From Myxococcota bacterium (lineage in GTDB: Bacteria; Myxococcota_A; UBA9042; DTJE01), in assembly GCA_017994695.1 (NCBI GenBank), contig JAGOKF010000008.1, positions 1 through 64,000 on the forward strand: a DNA stretch of 64,000 nucleotides, in the 5' to 3' direction. This document shows positions 5,862-27,381 of the stretch, one piece after another. The number at the start of each line of letters is the position of its first letter. Position 1 is the first letter of the stretch. Below the pieces are notes generated by a model, which ran no database searches, was not told the origin of the DNA, and worked only from the letters and a program-made list of their open reading frames with translations. A program made the position numbers and the translations under genes.

Positions 5862-7658
5862 CTATCCCACCAGCACCCGGCCTTCCGGGAAATGCACGGA
5901 GGCCCTGGGCTTCTGGCCCAGGGCCGTCACCAGGGTCAAGGGCCCGACCCGCCCCAGGAACATCAGGCCGACCAGCAGCAGTTTCCCCCACGGATCCAGC
6001 AGCGGGGTGGCCCCGAGGCTCAGGCCGACGGTGCCGAAGGCGCTGACCGCCTCAAAGACCAGGTGCGATCCCGGGATGTCCGCCTGGGTCCAGACCAGGC
6101 CCCCTGCGGCCAGCGTCGTCACCGCGAAGGACAGCAGGGTCACCACCCCGGCCTTCTGGAAGGTCCGGAAGGGGAGGGATCTCCCCATCACCTCGATGGC
6201 CTCCTGTCCCCGGAGCATGCTCCGCAGCGAGAGGAGCAGCACCGCCACGGAGGTCGTCTTGATCCCTCCGCCCGTCCCGCCTGGGCTGGCGCCGATGAAC
6301 ATCCACAGGAGGTAGACCAGCAGGGCGGCCCGGGAGGTCCGGGCCATGTCCACCACGTTGAAGCCCGCAGTCCTGGCCGTCACCGACTGGAAGAACGAGG
6401 CCCACAGGCGTTGGTCCAGCGACAGCCCCGCCTGGGCGCCGTCCCAGTCGGTCAGCATCAGGATCACCGTTCCCAGCACCAGCAGGAGGACGGTCATGCG
6501 GCCCGCCAGCCGGGCATGGAGAGGCAGCCGCAGGCGCAGGCGATGCCGCTGCCAGGTCCAGTGGCGCCGGGAGAACAGCGCCAGGAACACCGGGAAGCCG
6601 AGTCCGCCCAGGATGATCAGCCCGGCAACCGGCAGGATCACGGCCGGGGCGTCCAGGAAGCCCGTCAGGCTGGACGGGAAGGTCGAGAAACCGGCGTTGC
6701 AGAAGGCCGAGACCGCGTGGAACAGCCCGTGCCAGAGCGCTTCGCCCCACTCCAGATCCAGGTTCCGCCGGAAGGCCGCCGCCAGGCACAGGGTCCCGAT
6801 TCCCTCGAAGGCCAAGGTCATGCCCAGGATCGATGCGAGGTTGGTGCCGGTGGTGACGGCGCCTTCCTCGTCTACCAGGTTCTGGGCCAGGGACCTCCCC
6901 CGAACGCCCAGGGAGCCGCCCGCGATGGCCTGGAAGGCCGCCAGGGAGAGGGTCATGATGCCCAGACCCCCGGCCTGGATCAGGAGCAGGAGCACCACCT
7001 GCCCGAAGTGGCTGAGGGTCGGGAGGGCGGGATTCGCCCCGGGGGCTGCCGAGACGTTGATGGCGGACAGACCCGTCACGCAGAGGGCCGAGGTCGCGGT
7101 GAACAGGGCGTCGATCCAGGGGAGTCCCCGGAGGTCGATGGTCGCCCGGGGCAGCGCCAGCATCACGGTGCCGACCACGATGCCCCCGGCGAAGGACACG
7201 AGGGTGCCCATCGCCGGATTCCGGAACAGGAGGTCCAGGGTCCGCTGTCCCAGGCCCGTGGAACGGAACAGGGACCCGACCAGAAGGAGGGTCCGAAGGG
7301 TTCCGAGAATCGCGAATGCCGAGGGCACCGGGATCGACCAGGCCATCAGCACCAGCAGAACCCCGTCGGGGATGCACCGGCGGAGGTACCGCATCCGGTG
7401 CACCGCCTGGTACAGCCGCAGGGCGTGGTGCAGCAGCGAGAGGGCCACGGAGGTCGCGGCCGAGGCGTAGAGGGCTCCGACAGCCAGCGGATGGCGCCAG
7501 AGCAGAAGCCCCTCCACCGTCAGCACCACGCCCAGGAAGATCAGGGCGACGGATCCCGTCCAGAGGGCGGATCGGCGCAGCTGGTCCGGCAGATCACCTG
7601 GATAGGGGATCCATCTCATGGCGACGGCGTCCGCGGGGGATGGGGGAACCGGCGACAC
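5862..7658 (-). CDS. ktrB: KtrB/TrkH-type potassium transporter with N-terminal membrane extension
   Basis: This inner-membrane K+ uptake pore works with the following ktrA product. All four pseudo-repeat selectivity loops are visible: VTGLSAI, NAGFSTF, TAGFNVV and TVGLSLG, each with the pore-lining Gly. The intramembrane-loop signature GASPGGTGGGIKTTS is also present. At 598 residues it is longer than KtrB (about 450) or TrkH (about 480). The excess is about 140 N-terminal residues predicted to form three or four extra helices before the first pore repeat. The GTG at 7658 is the longest start; an in-frame ATG at 7619 is equally plausible, and neither has a clear ribosome site. Confidence 0.88.
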   Translation of the reverse strand: MSPVPPSPADAVAMRWIPYPGDLPDQLRRSALWTGSVALIFLGVVLTVEGLLLWRHPLAVGALYASAATSVALSLLHHALRLYQAVHRMRYLRRCIPDGVLLVLMAWSIPVPSAFAILGTLRTLLLVGSLFRSTGLGQRTLDLLFRNPAMGTLVSFAGGIVVGTVMLALPRATIDLRGLPWIDALFTATSALCVTGLSAINVSAAPGANPALPTLSHFGQVVLLLLIQAGGLGIMTLSLAAFQAIAGGSLGVRGRSLAQNLVDEEGAVTTGTNLASILGMTLAFEGIGTLCLAAAFRRNLDLEWGEALWHGLFHAVSAFCNAGFSTFPSSLTGFLDAPAVILPVAGLIILGGLGFPVFLALFSRRHWTWQRHRLRLRLPLHARLAGRMTVLLLVLGTVILMLTDWDGAQAGLSLDQRLWASFFQSVTARTAGFNVVDMARTSRAALLVYLLWMFIGASPGGTGGGIKTTSVAVLLLSLRSMLRGQEAIEVMGRSLPFRTFQKAGVVTLLSFAVTTLAAGGLVWTQADIPGSHLVFEAVSAFGTVGLSLGATPLLDPWGKLLLVGLMFLGRVGPLTLVTALGQKPRASVHFPEGRVLVG

Positions 7659-24439: not shown

Positions 24440-25099
24440 CTACCGGATCGATCCGCCGTTCGGACCCGGTCCCAGGGACCGGAGGAAGGCCAGGGAGGCC
24501 TCCACGGCTTCCGTCATGCACTCCTGGACCGTTCGTCCCGAGTCCCGGGCCGGCTGGAAGGAGTGGTCCCCCCGGGCGATCCAGTACCAGCGCAGGGCGG
24601 GCGACAGGCGCAGCCCCGCCACCTCCTCCCGGGACCCGTAGGGGTCCCGTTCGCCCTGGACGATCAGAGCCGCGGTGCGCAACACCTGGAGGTGTTCGAT
24701 GCGGAGCCGGTCCGGCCGTCCCGGGGCATGGAAGGGATAGCCCAGGCAGATCAGTCCCCCGACCCCCGCCTCGTCGGCCACGAGGCTGGCGATCCGTCCC
24801 CCCATCGACTTGCCGCCGATCACCAGGCGTCCCGGCGGACCCAGGCGGAGAACCACGGCGAGCCAGGTCTCCCGGAGGACCGGCAGGGAGTCCGGGGGCC
24901 TCCGGATGCCCTCCCGTCGCTGGCGGACCATGTAAGGGAACTCGAAGCGGACCACCGGGAAGCCCCCTTCGGCGATCCCGGACGCAATGGCTTCCAGGAA
25001 CGGGGAGTCGGCGGGGTTCCCCGCGCCGTGGGCCAGCACCACGACCCGGGGGCCCTCCCGGGGACCGTCGAACCAGAGTTCTCCGACCGGGTCGTTCAT
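24440..25099 (-). CDS. TEX30/KANL3-like alpha/beta hydrolase
   Basis: This 219-residue cytosolic protein has the alpha/beta-hydrolase order of the TEX30/KANL3 family. It opens with a VVLAHGAG oxyanion strand, then carries a long first stretch VVRFEFPYM, the nucleophile elbow GGKSMGGR (Ser near residue 119), the strand ALIVQGERDPYG with the acid, and the final His in ARGDHSFQ. All three catalytic residues are visible. Members are often called predicted hydrolases; substrates are unknown. It is the last gene of the eut run, 49 bp behind eutL::eutT, but a role in ethanolamine use is only inferred from position. Confidence 0.85.
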   Translation of the reverse strand: MNDPVGELWFDGPREGPRVVVLAHGAGNPADSPFLEAIASGIAEGGFPVVRFEFPYMVRQRREGIRRPPDSLPVLRETWLAVVLRLGPPGRLVIGGKSMGGRIASLVADEAGVGGLICLGYPFHAPGRPDRLRIEHLQVLRTAALIVQGERDPYGSREEVAGLRLSPALRWYWIARGDHSFQPARDSGRTVQECMTEAVEASLAFLRSLGPGPNGGSIR

Positions 25100-25148: not shown

Positions 25149-26462
25149 TCATGACGTCGGTTTCCGGCGCCGGGCCTCGGCCAGCACGACGGCCCGGCAG
25201 ACCAGCACGTAGATGGCGTTCGACAGGCGGTTGAATCCGTGCAGCAGGTCCTGTCGGGCTTCCTTCGAAAGGTGGGAATCCCCGCCGGCGAAGGCGTCGT
25301 GGGCGACGATTTCCACCTGTCGGCAGAAGGCCCGGAGGAGGTTCAGTTTCACCACCGTCCGGCCCATCGAGGCCCGGGGCACGACCCACCCGACGTCCAG
25401 GAAGCGGGAGGTCTGGTGGGAGATCCGGTGCAGTTCCTCGGGATCGAACCCCGCGACGACGGGGCGGGGCATGGGCTTTCCGGTAACCTCGGCCGCCATC
25501 ACCTTCCGCAGGTATTCCAGCACGTCGTCCAGGTCCCCGACCAGGCCGTCCAGGCCCTCGTCCATCGCGGCGATCTGGGCGTCCAGCACGTGGGCCTGGA
25601 GCAGGTCCAGGGCCCCCCGGAACCGGATCACCGGGTGCCCCTTCGGGACCAGCGACCGGTTGTCGAAGAGGTGGGTGTACCCGTCGGGCTTGGACGGGAG
25701 CCCCAGGTCGTTCTCCAGCAGGCGGTAGGGCGCGTCGTCCCGGTCCCCTCGGGGCTGTTCCCGGCGGCCGGCCAGGCGGCTGAGGACCTCCTCCAGGCCC
25801 TGGGAGGGCTCCAGGCGCCTGGGCTGCCGGGCCAGGTCCATCACGGTGTCCCGGAAGGCCCGGGCGGCGGCCTCCACCGCCTCGACGGTGCCCGTCAGCA
25901 GGCCGCCGGCGTAGTTCGTCTCGCTGGGGGGGGCGTAGAAGGTCCGCATGGTCACCTCGGCGGCCTTCAGGGCCGCGTCGAGGCCCATGGTCGCCTCCAG
26001 CGGCGGGGCGATCAGGTAGGCCATCGGCGTCCCGGGTTCCACGCCGGCCACCTTGGCCAGGTAGCGCCCCACGGCCGGGATCACATGGGGGAAGAAGGCC
26101 AGTCGCCCCTCCTCGTCCGCCGCGAAGAACCAGGCCTTCCGGTCCAGGTACCGGAGGCAGGCCGCCAGGCCGCTGGCCACCGTCTCGGCGTCCCGGGCCG
26201 CCAGGACCCCGATCACCTCCCCCGAGAGGGGGCCCGAGGCATGGGCGGCACCGGCATAGAACGACCGGGCATAGACGACGTCCACCTCGGCCTCCTTGGT
26301 GGCCTCGTCCAGGCTCGCGTAGAGGGCGTCGTCGCTGGTGCACGTCAACAGCCCGAGGCTCTGGTGCTCCGGGGCCAGGCGAAGGTCCCGGTGAAGGTCC
26401 GGGGCCACGTGGGGGATCGTCCGGATCGCCAGCACCCGGGGCTTGATGGGCATCCCGACCAT
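25149..26462 (-). CDS. EutL shell protein fused to EutT cobalamin adenosyltransferase
   Basis: One uninterrupted 437-residue frame joins two ethanolamine proteins. Residues 1-216 align along their whole length with EutL, the trimeric tandem-BMC shell protein with a gated pore; landmarks are YARSFYAGAAH (64-74), PMAYLIAPPLEAT (146-158) and YAPPSETNY (176-184). After a linker (217-255), residues 258-430 align with EutT, which adenosylates cob(I)alamin: KPDGYTHL, EELHRISHQ (342-350), VVPRASMGR (360-368) and NRLSNAIYV (411-419). The HX11CCX2C metal motif of Salmonella EutT is absent, since the fused part begins after it. ATG 26462 has GGGGAA upstream. It follows eutC by 22 bp, so the fusion would bring cofactor supply to the shell and lyase. 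Confidence 0.9.
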   Translation of the reverse strand: MVGMPIKPRVLAIRTIPHVAPDLHRDLRLAPEHQSLGLLTCTSDDALYASLDEATKEAEVDVVYARSFYAGAAHASGPLSGEVIGVLAARDAETVASGLAACLRYLDRKAWFFAADEEGRLAFFPHVIPAVGRYLAKVAGVEPGTPMAYLIAPPLEATMGLDAALKAAEVTMRTFYAPPSETNYAGGLLTGTVEAVEAAARAFRDTVMDLARQPRRLEPSQGLEEVLSRLAGRREQPRGDRDDAPYRLLENDLGLPSKPDGYTHLFDNRSLVPKGHPVIRFRGALDLLQAHVLDAQIAAMDEGLDGLVGDLDDVLEYLRKVMAAEVTGKPMPRPVVAGFDPEELHRISHQTSRFLDVGWVVPRASMGRTVVKLNLLRAFCRQVEIVAHDAFAGGDSHLSKEARQDLLHGFNRLSNAIYVLVCRAVVLAEARRRKPTS

Positions 26463-26484: not shown

Positions 26485-27381
26485 CTACTGCACCTCGACC
26501 CCGGTCTTCTTCTCCCGGAGCGCCCGGATCACCGCCTCGCCGACCTGGACCGCCGCCTCCGCCGGGGGAAGCCCGCCGGCGTGGATGTTGCTGATCACGT
26601 TGCGCATCGCCTCGTTGAACTGGCGGACCTTCATGTAGGTCACGTAGGCCCCCATCGACTCGGCCGTCTTCAGGCCGGGGCGTTCCCCGACCAGCAGGCA
26701 CAGCACCTCGGCCCCGGTCAGGCGGGCCACCTCGTCCGCCACGACCACCCGGCCCAGGGACACCACGAAGGGGGTTCCCAGGCGCACGCCGGCGCGGGTC
26801 AGCATCGCCGACAGGGGCGGCAGCAGCAGGGGCAGGTTCGCGTTCAGGGCCTGGGCCGACAGGCCGTCCACCGCGACGATCTGCACCTGGGGACCCCGGA
26901 TGCCCTGCTTCTGCACGATCTCCCGGGAGGAATCCGAAAGCCGTCGTCCCAGGTCCGGCCTCCGAAGGAAGGTCGCCCGATCCTTCGCCGCCGACTGCAG
27001 CGCCACGAACCCCAGGGAGGAGACCACCTGGGGATCGACCGACGACACCACCGCATCCCGGGCCGCCGCGTGATCCTCCTGGAACCGGAGGATGGTGGAG
27101 GTGCGGTACCGGACCCCGGCGGACCCCACCCCCAGGCGGGCCGGCGTCTTTCCCAGGTAGAAGTTCCGGTCCCCCCTGGGGCGCCATCGGCCCAGGATCG
27201 GAGGCTGCGGCAGGGCGGCGCCCATCCACAGAGCGGTTCGCTTCGCCAGCGCGACGTCCTCGGGGTCCGCCGCCGGCAGCGGCGCGGGCGGGGACGGTTC
27301 GTCCGTCCCGGGGACCTCCCGGCCCCCCAGCGTCCGGACCACCACGGCCCGGATCACCTCCCGCAGTTCCCGATCGTCCAT
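26485..27381 (-). CDS. eutC: Ethanolamine ammonia-lyase small subunit
   Basis: EutC pairs with EutB to form the adenosylcobalamin-dependent enzyme that turns ethanolamine into acetaldehyde and ammonia. The 298 residues are close to E. coli EutC (295). Visible family stretches are RTALWMGAALPQ-like near 48, SSLGFVALQSAAKDR, VQIVAVDGLSAQALNANL, VVSLGRVVVADEVA and LLVGERPGLKTAESMGAY in the cobalamin-contact region. ATG 27381 has GGGGAG upstream and lies 10 bp after the eutB stop. Confidence 0.96.
   Translation of the reverse strand: MDDRELREVIRAVVVRTLGGREVPGTDEPSPPAPLPAADPEDVALAKRTALWMGAALPQPPILGRWRPRGDRNFYLGKTPARLGVGSAGVRYRTSTILRFQEDHAAARDAVVSSVDPQVVSSLGFVALQSAAKDRATFLRRPDLGRRLSDSSREIVQKQGIRGPQVQIVAVDGLSAQALNANLPLLLPPLSAMLTRAGVRLGTPFVVSLGRVVVADEVARLTGAEVLCLLVGERPGLKTAESMGAYVTYMKVRQFNEAMRNVISNIHAGGLPPAEAAVQVGEAVIRALREKKTGVEVQ

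What the first reader, a model, noticed from the sequence alone, without database searches (positions are those of the whole stretch)
25149..26462. EutL shell protein fused to the EutT adenosyltransferase
A single 437-residue frame contains a complete EutL (1-216) and the catalytic part of EutT (258-430) without an intervening stop. The junction follows the natural end of EutL and starts EutT after its known metal-binding motif HX11CCX2C, which is missing. I recall EutL and EutT as separate proteins in characterised eut loci. A fusion would tether cobalamin adenosylation to the shell trimer, perhaps near its gated pore, and deliver adenosylcobalamin straight to EutBC. I cannot tell whether the fusion is already described.
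Basis: partly seen in the sequence, partly recalled or inferred. Interest (0 to 1): 0.85.

Follow-up and report, generated by a model that had tools for sequence, protein, structure and literature searches.

The report
Microcompartment shell protein fused to B12-activating enzyme
In one branch of Myxococcota bacteria, the pore-forming shell protein (EutL) of a protein organelle that breaks down ethanolamine is permanently joined to the enzyme (EutT) that makes the vitamin B12 cofactor the organelle needs, so cofactor production is probably built into the organelle's wall; the fusion is real and conserved and I found no description of it.

Summary
The fusion is real. On the minus strand, 25149-26462 encodes a 437-aa protein: a complete EutL (5-215), a variable 43-aa linker and a complete PduO/EutT-type adenosyltransferase domain (about 257-426). 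It is the third gene of eutB-eutC-eutLT. It is no assembly error: 22 of 379 Myxococcota genomes carry it, from independent projects (one copy is split between two contig ends). In that sample no stand-alone EutT was found. Fused EutLs form one supported clade, so one origin and one later loss is simplest. The transferase half keeps the residues shared with E. coli, Pseudomonas and Listeria EutT, is under purifying selection, and its predicted fold matches PduO-type enzymes.

New: free EutT carries an N-terminal segment homologous to the shell-docking segment of EutQ. The fusion lacks that segment and has EutL in its place. Genomes with the fusion carry the EutB lineage of canonical EutT-containing operons; EutT-less Myxococcota carry another, and so does the one genome that lost the EutT half.

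Most likely a covalent tether replaces non-covalent docking, keeping adenosylcobalamin regeneration beside encapsulated EutBC. Pore coupling, lumenal orientation and activity are untested. EutBC-EutL satellite modules are known; the fusion was not found in accessible literature.

The parts
25149..26462 (-). eutLT: fused EutL shell protein / EutT-type adenosyltransferase, 437 aa
   Evidence: conserved fusion
25815..26462 (-). EutL part (residues 1-216), two BMC domains, trimer-forming pore protein by homology
   Evidence: TIGR04502 305 bits; 4edi EutL E 1e-62; AF2 model vs EutL structures TM (target) about 0.9
25695..25814 (-). linker (about residues 217-256): poorly conserved, low pLDDT, one short predicted helix; 37-52 aa in all fused proteins
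   Evidence: dN/dS about 0.5-1.0 in the more distant pairs
25173..25694 (-). EutT/PduO-type ATP:corrinoid adenosyltransferase domain (residues 257-430), without the N-terminal extension of free EutT
   Evidence: PF01923 profile 8-169 of 171; AF2 pLDDT 89.7, Foldseek best hits are PduO-type enzymes
25311..25334 (-). R377-x3-R381-x2-E384 motif, aligned with the RxxxRxxE motif of PduO-type enzymes
   Evidence: invariant in the aligned fused proteins and in E. coli/Pseudomonas/Listeria/C. difficile EutT; aligned with TA0546 (1nog)
26485..27381 (-). eutC, ethanolamine ammonia-lyase small subunit
   Evidence: PF05985 250 bits
27322..27381 (-). EutC residues 1-20 (MDDRELREVIRAVVVRTLGG), predicted encapsulation peptide like those of E. 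coli and Listeria EutC
   Evidence: sequence comparison; EutC 1-20 is the encapsulation-peptide segment studied in Salmonella (PMC12487888)
27392..28789 (-). eutB, ethanolamine ammonia-lyase large subunit
   Evidence: PF06751 678 bits; 10 bases before eutC, which lies 22 bases before eutLT

Best explanation
EutLT is a shell tile of a Myxococcota metabolosome that carries its own cobalamin adenosyltransferase. The EutL half assembles as a trimer in the shell facet; each chain carries, on a flexible 37-52 residue linker, a complete PduO/EutT-type domain that makes adenosylcobalamin from ATP and reduced cobalamin for EutBC, whose EutC subunit has an encapsulation peptide. In ordinary eut systems free EutT has an N-terminal segment homologous to the segment with which EutQ docks on the shell; in EutLT that docking segment is gone and the covalent bond to EutL does its work. 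Shown here: the fusion, its conservation, the likely single origin, the intact conserved residues and purifying selection, the EutT/EutQ N-terminal homology, and the coupling to one EutB lineage. Inferred: shell incorporation, lumenal orientation, activity, and local recycling of the cofactor.
For: Conserved in-frame fusion in 22 genomes. A EutT profile finds EutT in exactly those 22 of 379 genomes and never stand-alone, apart from one pair split at contig ends; the other hits are weak (23-30 bits), as expected for PduO. EutL tree: 24 fused rows plus one unfused row form a 98/91 clade. EutT half: residues invariant across both classes of free EutT, including R377, R381, E384 and N411-R412-x-S414; dN/dS 0.12-0.44; AF2 pLDDT 89.7 and Foldseek top hits PduO-type or human adenosyltransferases. 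EutT 1-50 vs EutQ 1-50: hhalign probability 90, score 34.7, best of 200 column shuffles 15.7; EutQ helices H1/H2 (residues 9-41) bind the shell, proposed at the EutL/EutM interface (PMC12487888). EutB tree: a 100/98 branch puts all sampled EutBs of fusion genomes with E. coli and Firmicutes EutB, apart from all EutT-less Myxococcota EutBs sampled; the genome that lost the EutT half (G352) has the EutT-less lineage. Own genome encodes other shell proteins, an aldehyde dehydrogenase with an N-terminal encapsulation-like peptide, and an RnfC/PduS-like flavoprotein next to a PduT-like BMC-T, a plausible cobalamin reductase.
Against: No activity, assembly or localisation data exist for any EutLT. 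EutL C-terminus orientation was not measured here; for permuted shell proteins it is argued from PduB and PduU (PMC12108088, PMC6109187), and PMC6109187 itself notes ambiguity. Three extra domains per trimer could crowd the shell. The genome also has an ordinary PduO, so EutLT need not be the only supplier. No EutA was found in the class, so how spent cofactor leaves EutBC is unknown. The EutT/EutQ homology rests on 5 and 2 sequences.
Confidence: 0.62

Rival explanations
1. Pore-coupled cofactor gate: three EutT domains form a C3 trimer stacked on the EutL pore, so cobalamin that binds or crosses EutL is adenosylated as it enters and is delivered to EutBC.
For: EutL is trimeric and proposed to pass AdoCbl through its gated pore (PMC5821096); a shell-protein structure with bound cobalamin is reported (title cited in PMC5853799; that it is C. 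perfringens EutL is my own knowledge); the nearest folds are PduO-type enzymes, which are trimers (own knowledge). The linker would allow it.
Against: The linker is long, variable and nearly unconstrained, which argues against a precise geometry. No complex could be modelled here.
Confidence: 0.2
2. Cytosol-facing loading: the EutT domain hangs outside the shell, uses cytosolic ATP and reductase, and makes AdoCbl that then enters through EutL.
For: ATP and a cobalamin reductase are easy to reach in the cytosol; authors of PMC12487888 note that ATP and ADP may pass pores poorly.
Against: The related permuted tile PduB uses its terminus to bind the core (PMC12108088); permuted termini are argued to face the lumen (PMC6109187); EutC carries an encapsulation peptide.
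Confidence: 0.12
3. The EutT half is no longer an enzyme but a cobalamin-binding sensor or structural part of the tile.
For: No assay exists; the genome keeps a separate PduO enzyme.
Against: Motif residues invariant over deep divergence and purifying selection; the domain is lost together with a switch of EutB lineage.
Confidence: 0.05
4. Artefact: assembly or sequencing error that removed a stop between two genes.
For: The window comes from a fragmented draft genome (158 contigs).
Against: Same fusion in 22 genomes from independent projects, with the linker varying in sequence and length.
Confidence: 0.01

Closest known systems
EUT modules, satellite loci of HO, SPU3 and SPU6 microcompartments (Sutter et al. 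2021, PMC8217296)
   Same: EutB, EutC and a EutL-type shell protein encoded away from the main shell locus; the own genome also has separate BMC-H, BMC-P (including a run of three) and BMC-T loci.
   Different: The paper's main text mentions EutA/B/C and EutL but no EutT and no fusion; no true EutA was found here. Its supplementary figure 4 could not be read.
Stand-alone EutT, class with HX11CCX2C motif (E. coli, Salmonella, Pseudomonas)
   Same: Homologous adenosyltransferase domain, same invariant residues.
   Different: The fusion lacks the whole N-terminal extension including the metal motif and is joined to EutL.
Stand-alone EutT of Firmicutes (Listeria, C. difficile)
   Same: No metal motif; same domain.
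   Different: Free EutT keeps the EutQ-like N-terminal segment; in the fusion EutL stands in its place.
EutL (PDB 3gfh, 3i82, 4edi, 3u27)
   Same: Full-length EutL, about 50% identical to the C. perfringens protein, predicted same fold.
   Different: About 220 extra residues with an enzyme domain at the C-terminus.
EutQ
   Same: Its N-terminal 50 residues are homologous to those of free EutT and include the shell-docking helices.
   Different: Cupin acetate kinase, not fused to a shell protein, no adenosyltransferase.

Membership tests
EutL (BMC-T shell protein) | Two BMC domains of EutL type over full length | tested here: met
   TIGR04502 305 bits, profile positions 2-212 of 214, above cut-off; Foldseek EutL TM (target) about 0.9
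EutL (BMC-T shell protein) | Trimeric tile with gated central pore | not testable with these tools
   only a monomer could be modelled
PduO/EutT-type ATP:corrinoid adenosyltransferase domain | PF01923 domain, complete, with RxxxRxxE and NRLS motifs | tested here: met
   profile 8-169 of 171; motifs; fold
PduO/EutT-type ATP:corrinoid adenosyltransferase domain | Adenosyltransferase activity | not testable with these tools
   no assay
EutT (whole-protein model NF011595) | Full-length EutT including N-terminal extension | tested here: not met
   only profile positions 89-250 match, 101 bits, below cut-off 226; it is therefore called a EutT-type domain, not a EutT
Class I EutT | HX11CCX2C metal motif | tested here: not met
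   absent from the fused proteins aligned
EUT module satellite locus | EutB, EutC and EutL-type protein together, away from the main shell locus | tested here: met
EUT module satellite locus | EutA present | tested here: not met
   only matches of about 45-75 residues around the ATPase motif in the class, none EutA-like over its length
HO-type microcompartment | BMC-P triplet, HO-type aldehyde dehydrogenase and BMC-Tdp | tested here: inconclusive
   three tandem BMC-P domains at C136 and an aldehyde dehydrogenase in the shell locus at C42; BMC-Tdp type and dehydrogenase clade not tested

The most novel reading that the evidence does not exclude
EutLT is a pore-coupled enzyme tile: a shell trimer whose three adenosyltransferase domains sit on the EutL pore and convert cobalamin to adenosylcobalamin on entry, a natural enzyme-gated organelle pore.
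Probability: 0.2. Interest if true: 0.85.

Novelty: new variant of a known kind. Interest (0 to 1): 0.66.

Why it matters
How cobalamin reaches, is activated in, and is recycled within ethanolamine microcompartments is unsettled; EutL has been proposed as the cofactor gate on structural grounds. A natural covalent EutL-EutT protein links the proposed gate to cofactor activation and gives a single-gene system to test it. It suggests that free EutT is held at the shell by a EutQ-like docking segment, which can be tested directly in laboratory strains. It is also a natural template for attaching enzymes to shell tiles in synthetic biology.

Tried and rejected
Sequencing or assembly artefact: rejected by 22 genomes. 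Stand-alone EutT elsewhere in the genome or phylum sample: none (the second adenosyltransferase is PduO type). EutA near or far: none in the class. Cobalamin riboswitch in the window: no Rfam match at gathering threshold. The SARGxGE motif in linkers of the second fused subclade was tested as a shared tag; in those loci it occurs only in the EutL-type proteins, including the truncated EutL of G352, apart from one chance-like partial match. Fusions on plasmids: none. Tree of the EutT domain alone was unresolved because the PduO outgroup is too far. The key papers on EutL-cobalamin, Listeria EutT and EutT localisation were not held.

Full report
What is there. The gene lies on the minus strand, 26462 down to 25149, and encodes 437 residues without an internal stop. 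Residues 5-215 are a full EutL (TIGR04502 305 bits, cut-off 300) and residues 257-426 match the EutT model from position 89 on; Pfam's adenosyltransferase domain is covered at 8-169 of 171 positions. It is the last gene of a tight run eutB (28789-27392), eutC (27381-26485), eutLT, with gaps of 10 and 22 bases. The next gene, an alpha/beta hydrolase, is shared only with the same-genus genome among the neighbourhoods compared.

Is it real. In the class, 15 of 52 genomes carry the same in-frame fusion at 60-90% identity (the window's own included) and 21 carry EutL alone. In an even sample of 379 Myxococcota genomes, 95 have EutL; 21 are fused in one frame and one more (G216) is cut by contig ends, with EutL at the end of one contig and EutT at the end of another. 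A scan of 85,000 species gave 16 complete fusions and one cut by its contig end, in separately deposited records, and otherwise only a stand-alone class I EutT in Pseudomonas nitroreducens. The linker varies from 37 to 52 residues. An assembly error is excluded.

No stand-alone EutT in this phylum sample. A profile built from fused and free EutT found strong matches in exactly those 22 genomes; the remaining hits were 23-30 bits over part of the domain, as expected for PduO. Unfused Myxococcota of the sample therefore have EutBC and EutL but no detected EutT. The window's genome also has an ordinary PduO enzyme.

Origin. In a tree of EutL parts, all 24 fused rows (some genomes twice) and one unfused row form a clade with 98/91 support, separate from the other Myxococcota EutLs. 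The unfused row, G352, sits inside the clade and ends in the middle of the linker (SARGAGE...), so it is best read as a loss of the EutT half. One gain and one loss is the simplest account. The EutT domain alone gives too little signal to test this separately.

Is the enzyme half intact. Residues invariant across E. coli, Pseudomonas, Listeria and C. difficile EutT are kept, including R377, R381, E384 and the NRLS stretch. These positions align with the corresponding motifs of a PduO-type protein (1nog). Pairwise dN/dS is 0.12-0.44 for the EutT part and 0.12-0.26 for EutL, against about 0.5-1.0 for the linker in the more distant pairs. AlphaFold2 gives the domain pLDDT 89.7 and pTM 0.86; the top Foldseek hits are human and bacterial PduO-type adenosyltransferases, TM to target about 0.5-0.7. 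The full model has an ordered EutL (TM to EutL structures about 0.9) and a disordered linker. The metal motif HX11CCX2C is absent, as in Firmicutes EutT.

What was replaced. Free EutT has an N-terminal extension before the adenosyltransferase domain. Its first 50 residues align end to end with the first 50 of EutQ (probability 90, 31% identity over 48 columns, score 34.7; none of 200 column shuffles exceeded 15.7). In Salmonella, EutQ residues 9-41 dock on the shell and EutQ is proposed to bind at the EutL/EutM interface (PMC12487888). The fusion lacks this segment and has EutL there. My inference is that a non-covalent shell dock was replaced by a covalent one. This predicts that free EutT in other bacteria is shell-docked through residues 1-50.

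Who uses the product. EutC of the window starts with MDDRELREVIRAVVVRTLGG, like the encapsulation peptides of E. coli and Listeria EutC. In a EutB tree a 100/98 branch puts the EutBs of the fusion genomes sampled together with E. coli and Firmicutes EutB, whose operons contain EutT, and all sampled EutT-less Myxococcota EutBs on the other side. G352, which lost the EutT half, has EutB of the EutT-less lineage. The EutT domain thus travels with one EutB lineage, as expected if it supplies that enzyme. EutB was found in 20 of the 22 EutT genomes; in the other two the contig ends inside eutC.

Wider setting. The own genome encodes a main shell locus (BMC-H of EutM type, BMC-P, an aldehyde dehydrogenase with an encapsulation-like N-terminus, BMC-T) at C42, a run of three BMC-P at C136, two at C110, one at C65, and an RnfC/PduS-like flavoprotein beside a PduT-like BMC-T at C97. 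This resembles the HO-type system with a EUT satellite module described in PMC8217296, but that main text names no EutT and no fusion, and no EutA was found in this class.

Mechanism and limits. Most likely EutLT is a tile that holds adenosylcobalamin synthesis at the shell beside encapsulated EutBC. Lumenal orientation is argued from relatives: the N-terminal signal of PduB binds the core (PMC12108088) and permuted shell proteins are thought to have termini on the lumenal side (PMC6109187, which notes ambiguity). Pore coupling is attractive, because EutL is proposed to pass AdoCbl (PMC5821096) and a cobalamin-bound shell-protein structure is cited (PMC5853799), but the long unconstrained linker gives it no support. 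Activity, assembly and orientation need experiments.

Novelty. Each half and the EUT module are known. The covalent EutL-EutT protein, its restriction to one Myxococcota lineage in the data searched, the absence of free EutT there, and the EutT/EutQ shared docking segment were not found in ten literature searches of the open-access library. Subscription papers and supplements were not readable, so prior mention cannot be excluded.

Noticed in passing
L166 (E. coli eutT/eutQ), L115-L118: The first 50 residues of free EutT and of EutQ are homologous, suggesting a shared shell-docking segment in canonical eut operons; a Pfam scan of these proteins gave no match there.
   Followed up: partly
L152 (G352), 6170-7156 +: A EutL inside the fused clade that lost the EutT half, keeps part of the linker, and carries an N-terminal extension with a EutC-like encapsulation peptide (VDRQALAALVRTTLSGM); no eutBC nearby.
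   Followed up: partly
class relatives: No EutA reactivase in any genome of the class although EutBC is common; how these enzymes are reactivated is unknown.
   Followed up: partly
L168, L169 and genomes G340, G369, G371, G293: A second, divergent EutB-like protein (33-34% identical in L168 and L169) in long open frames, with no EutC found beside it in the two regions examined.
   Followed up: no
G000 C97 (L047 7691-9609 +): RnfC/PduS-like flavoprotein directly followed by a PduT-like BMC-T, just upstream of a ribosomal protein operon; a candidate cobalamin reductase of the same organelle.
   Followed up: partly
L117 11449-12207 +: Cetobacterium EutT is annotated as hypothetical protein; it aligns with EutT over its length.
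   Followed up: partly
G113, G267, G323, G332: In the second fused subclade eutLT lies apart from eutB, which is on another contig (eutC stays next to eutLT in three of the four), unlike the three-gene run of the window.
   Followed up: partly
window 24440-25099 -: Abhydrolase_11 gene 49 bases after eutLT, conserved only in the same genus at this place.
   Followed up: no
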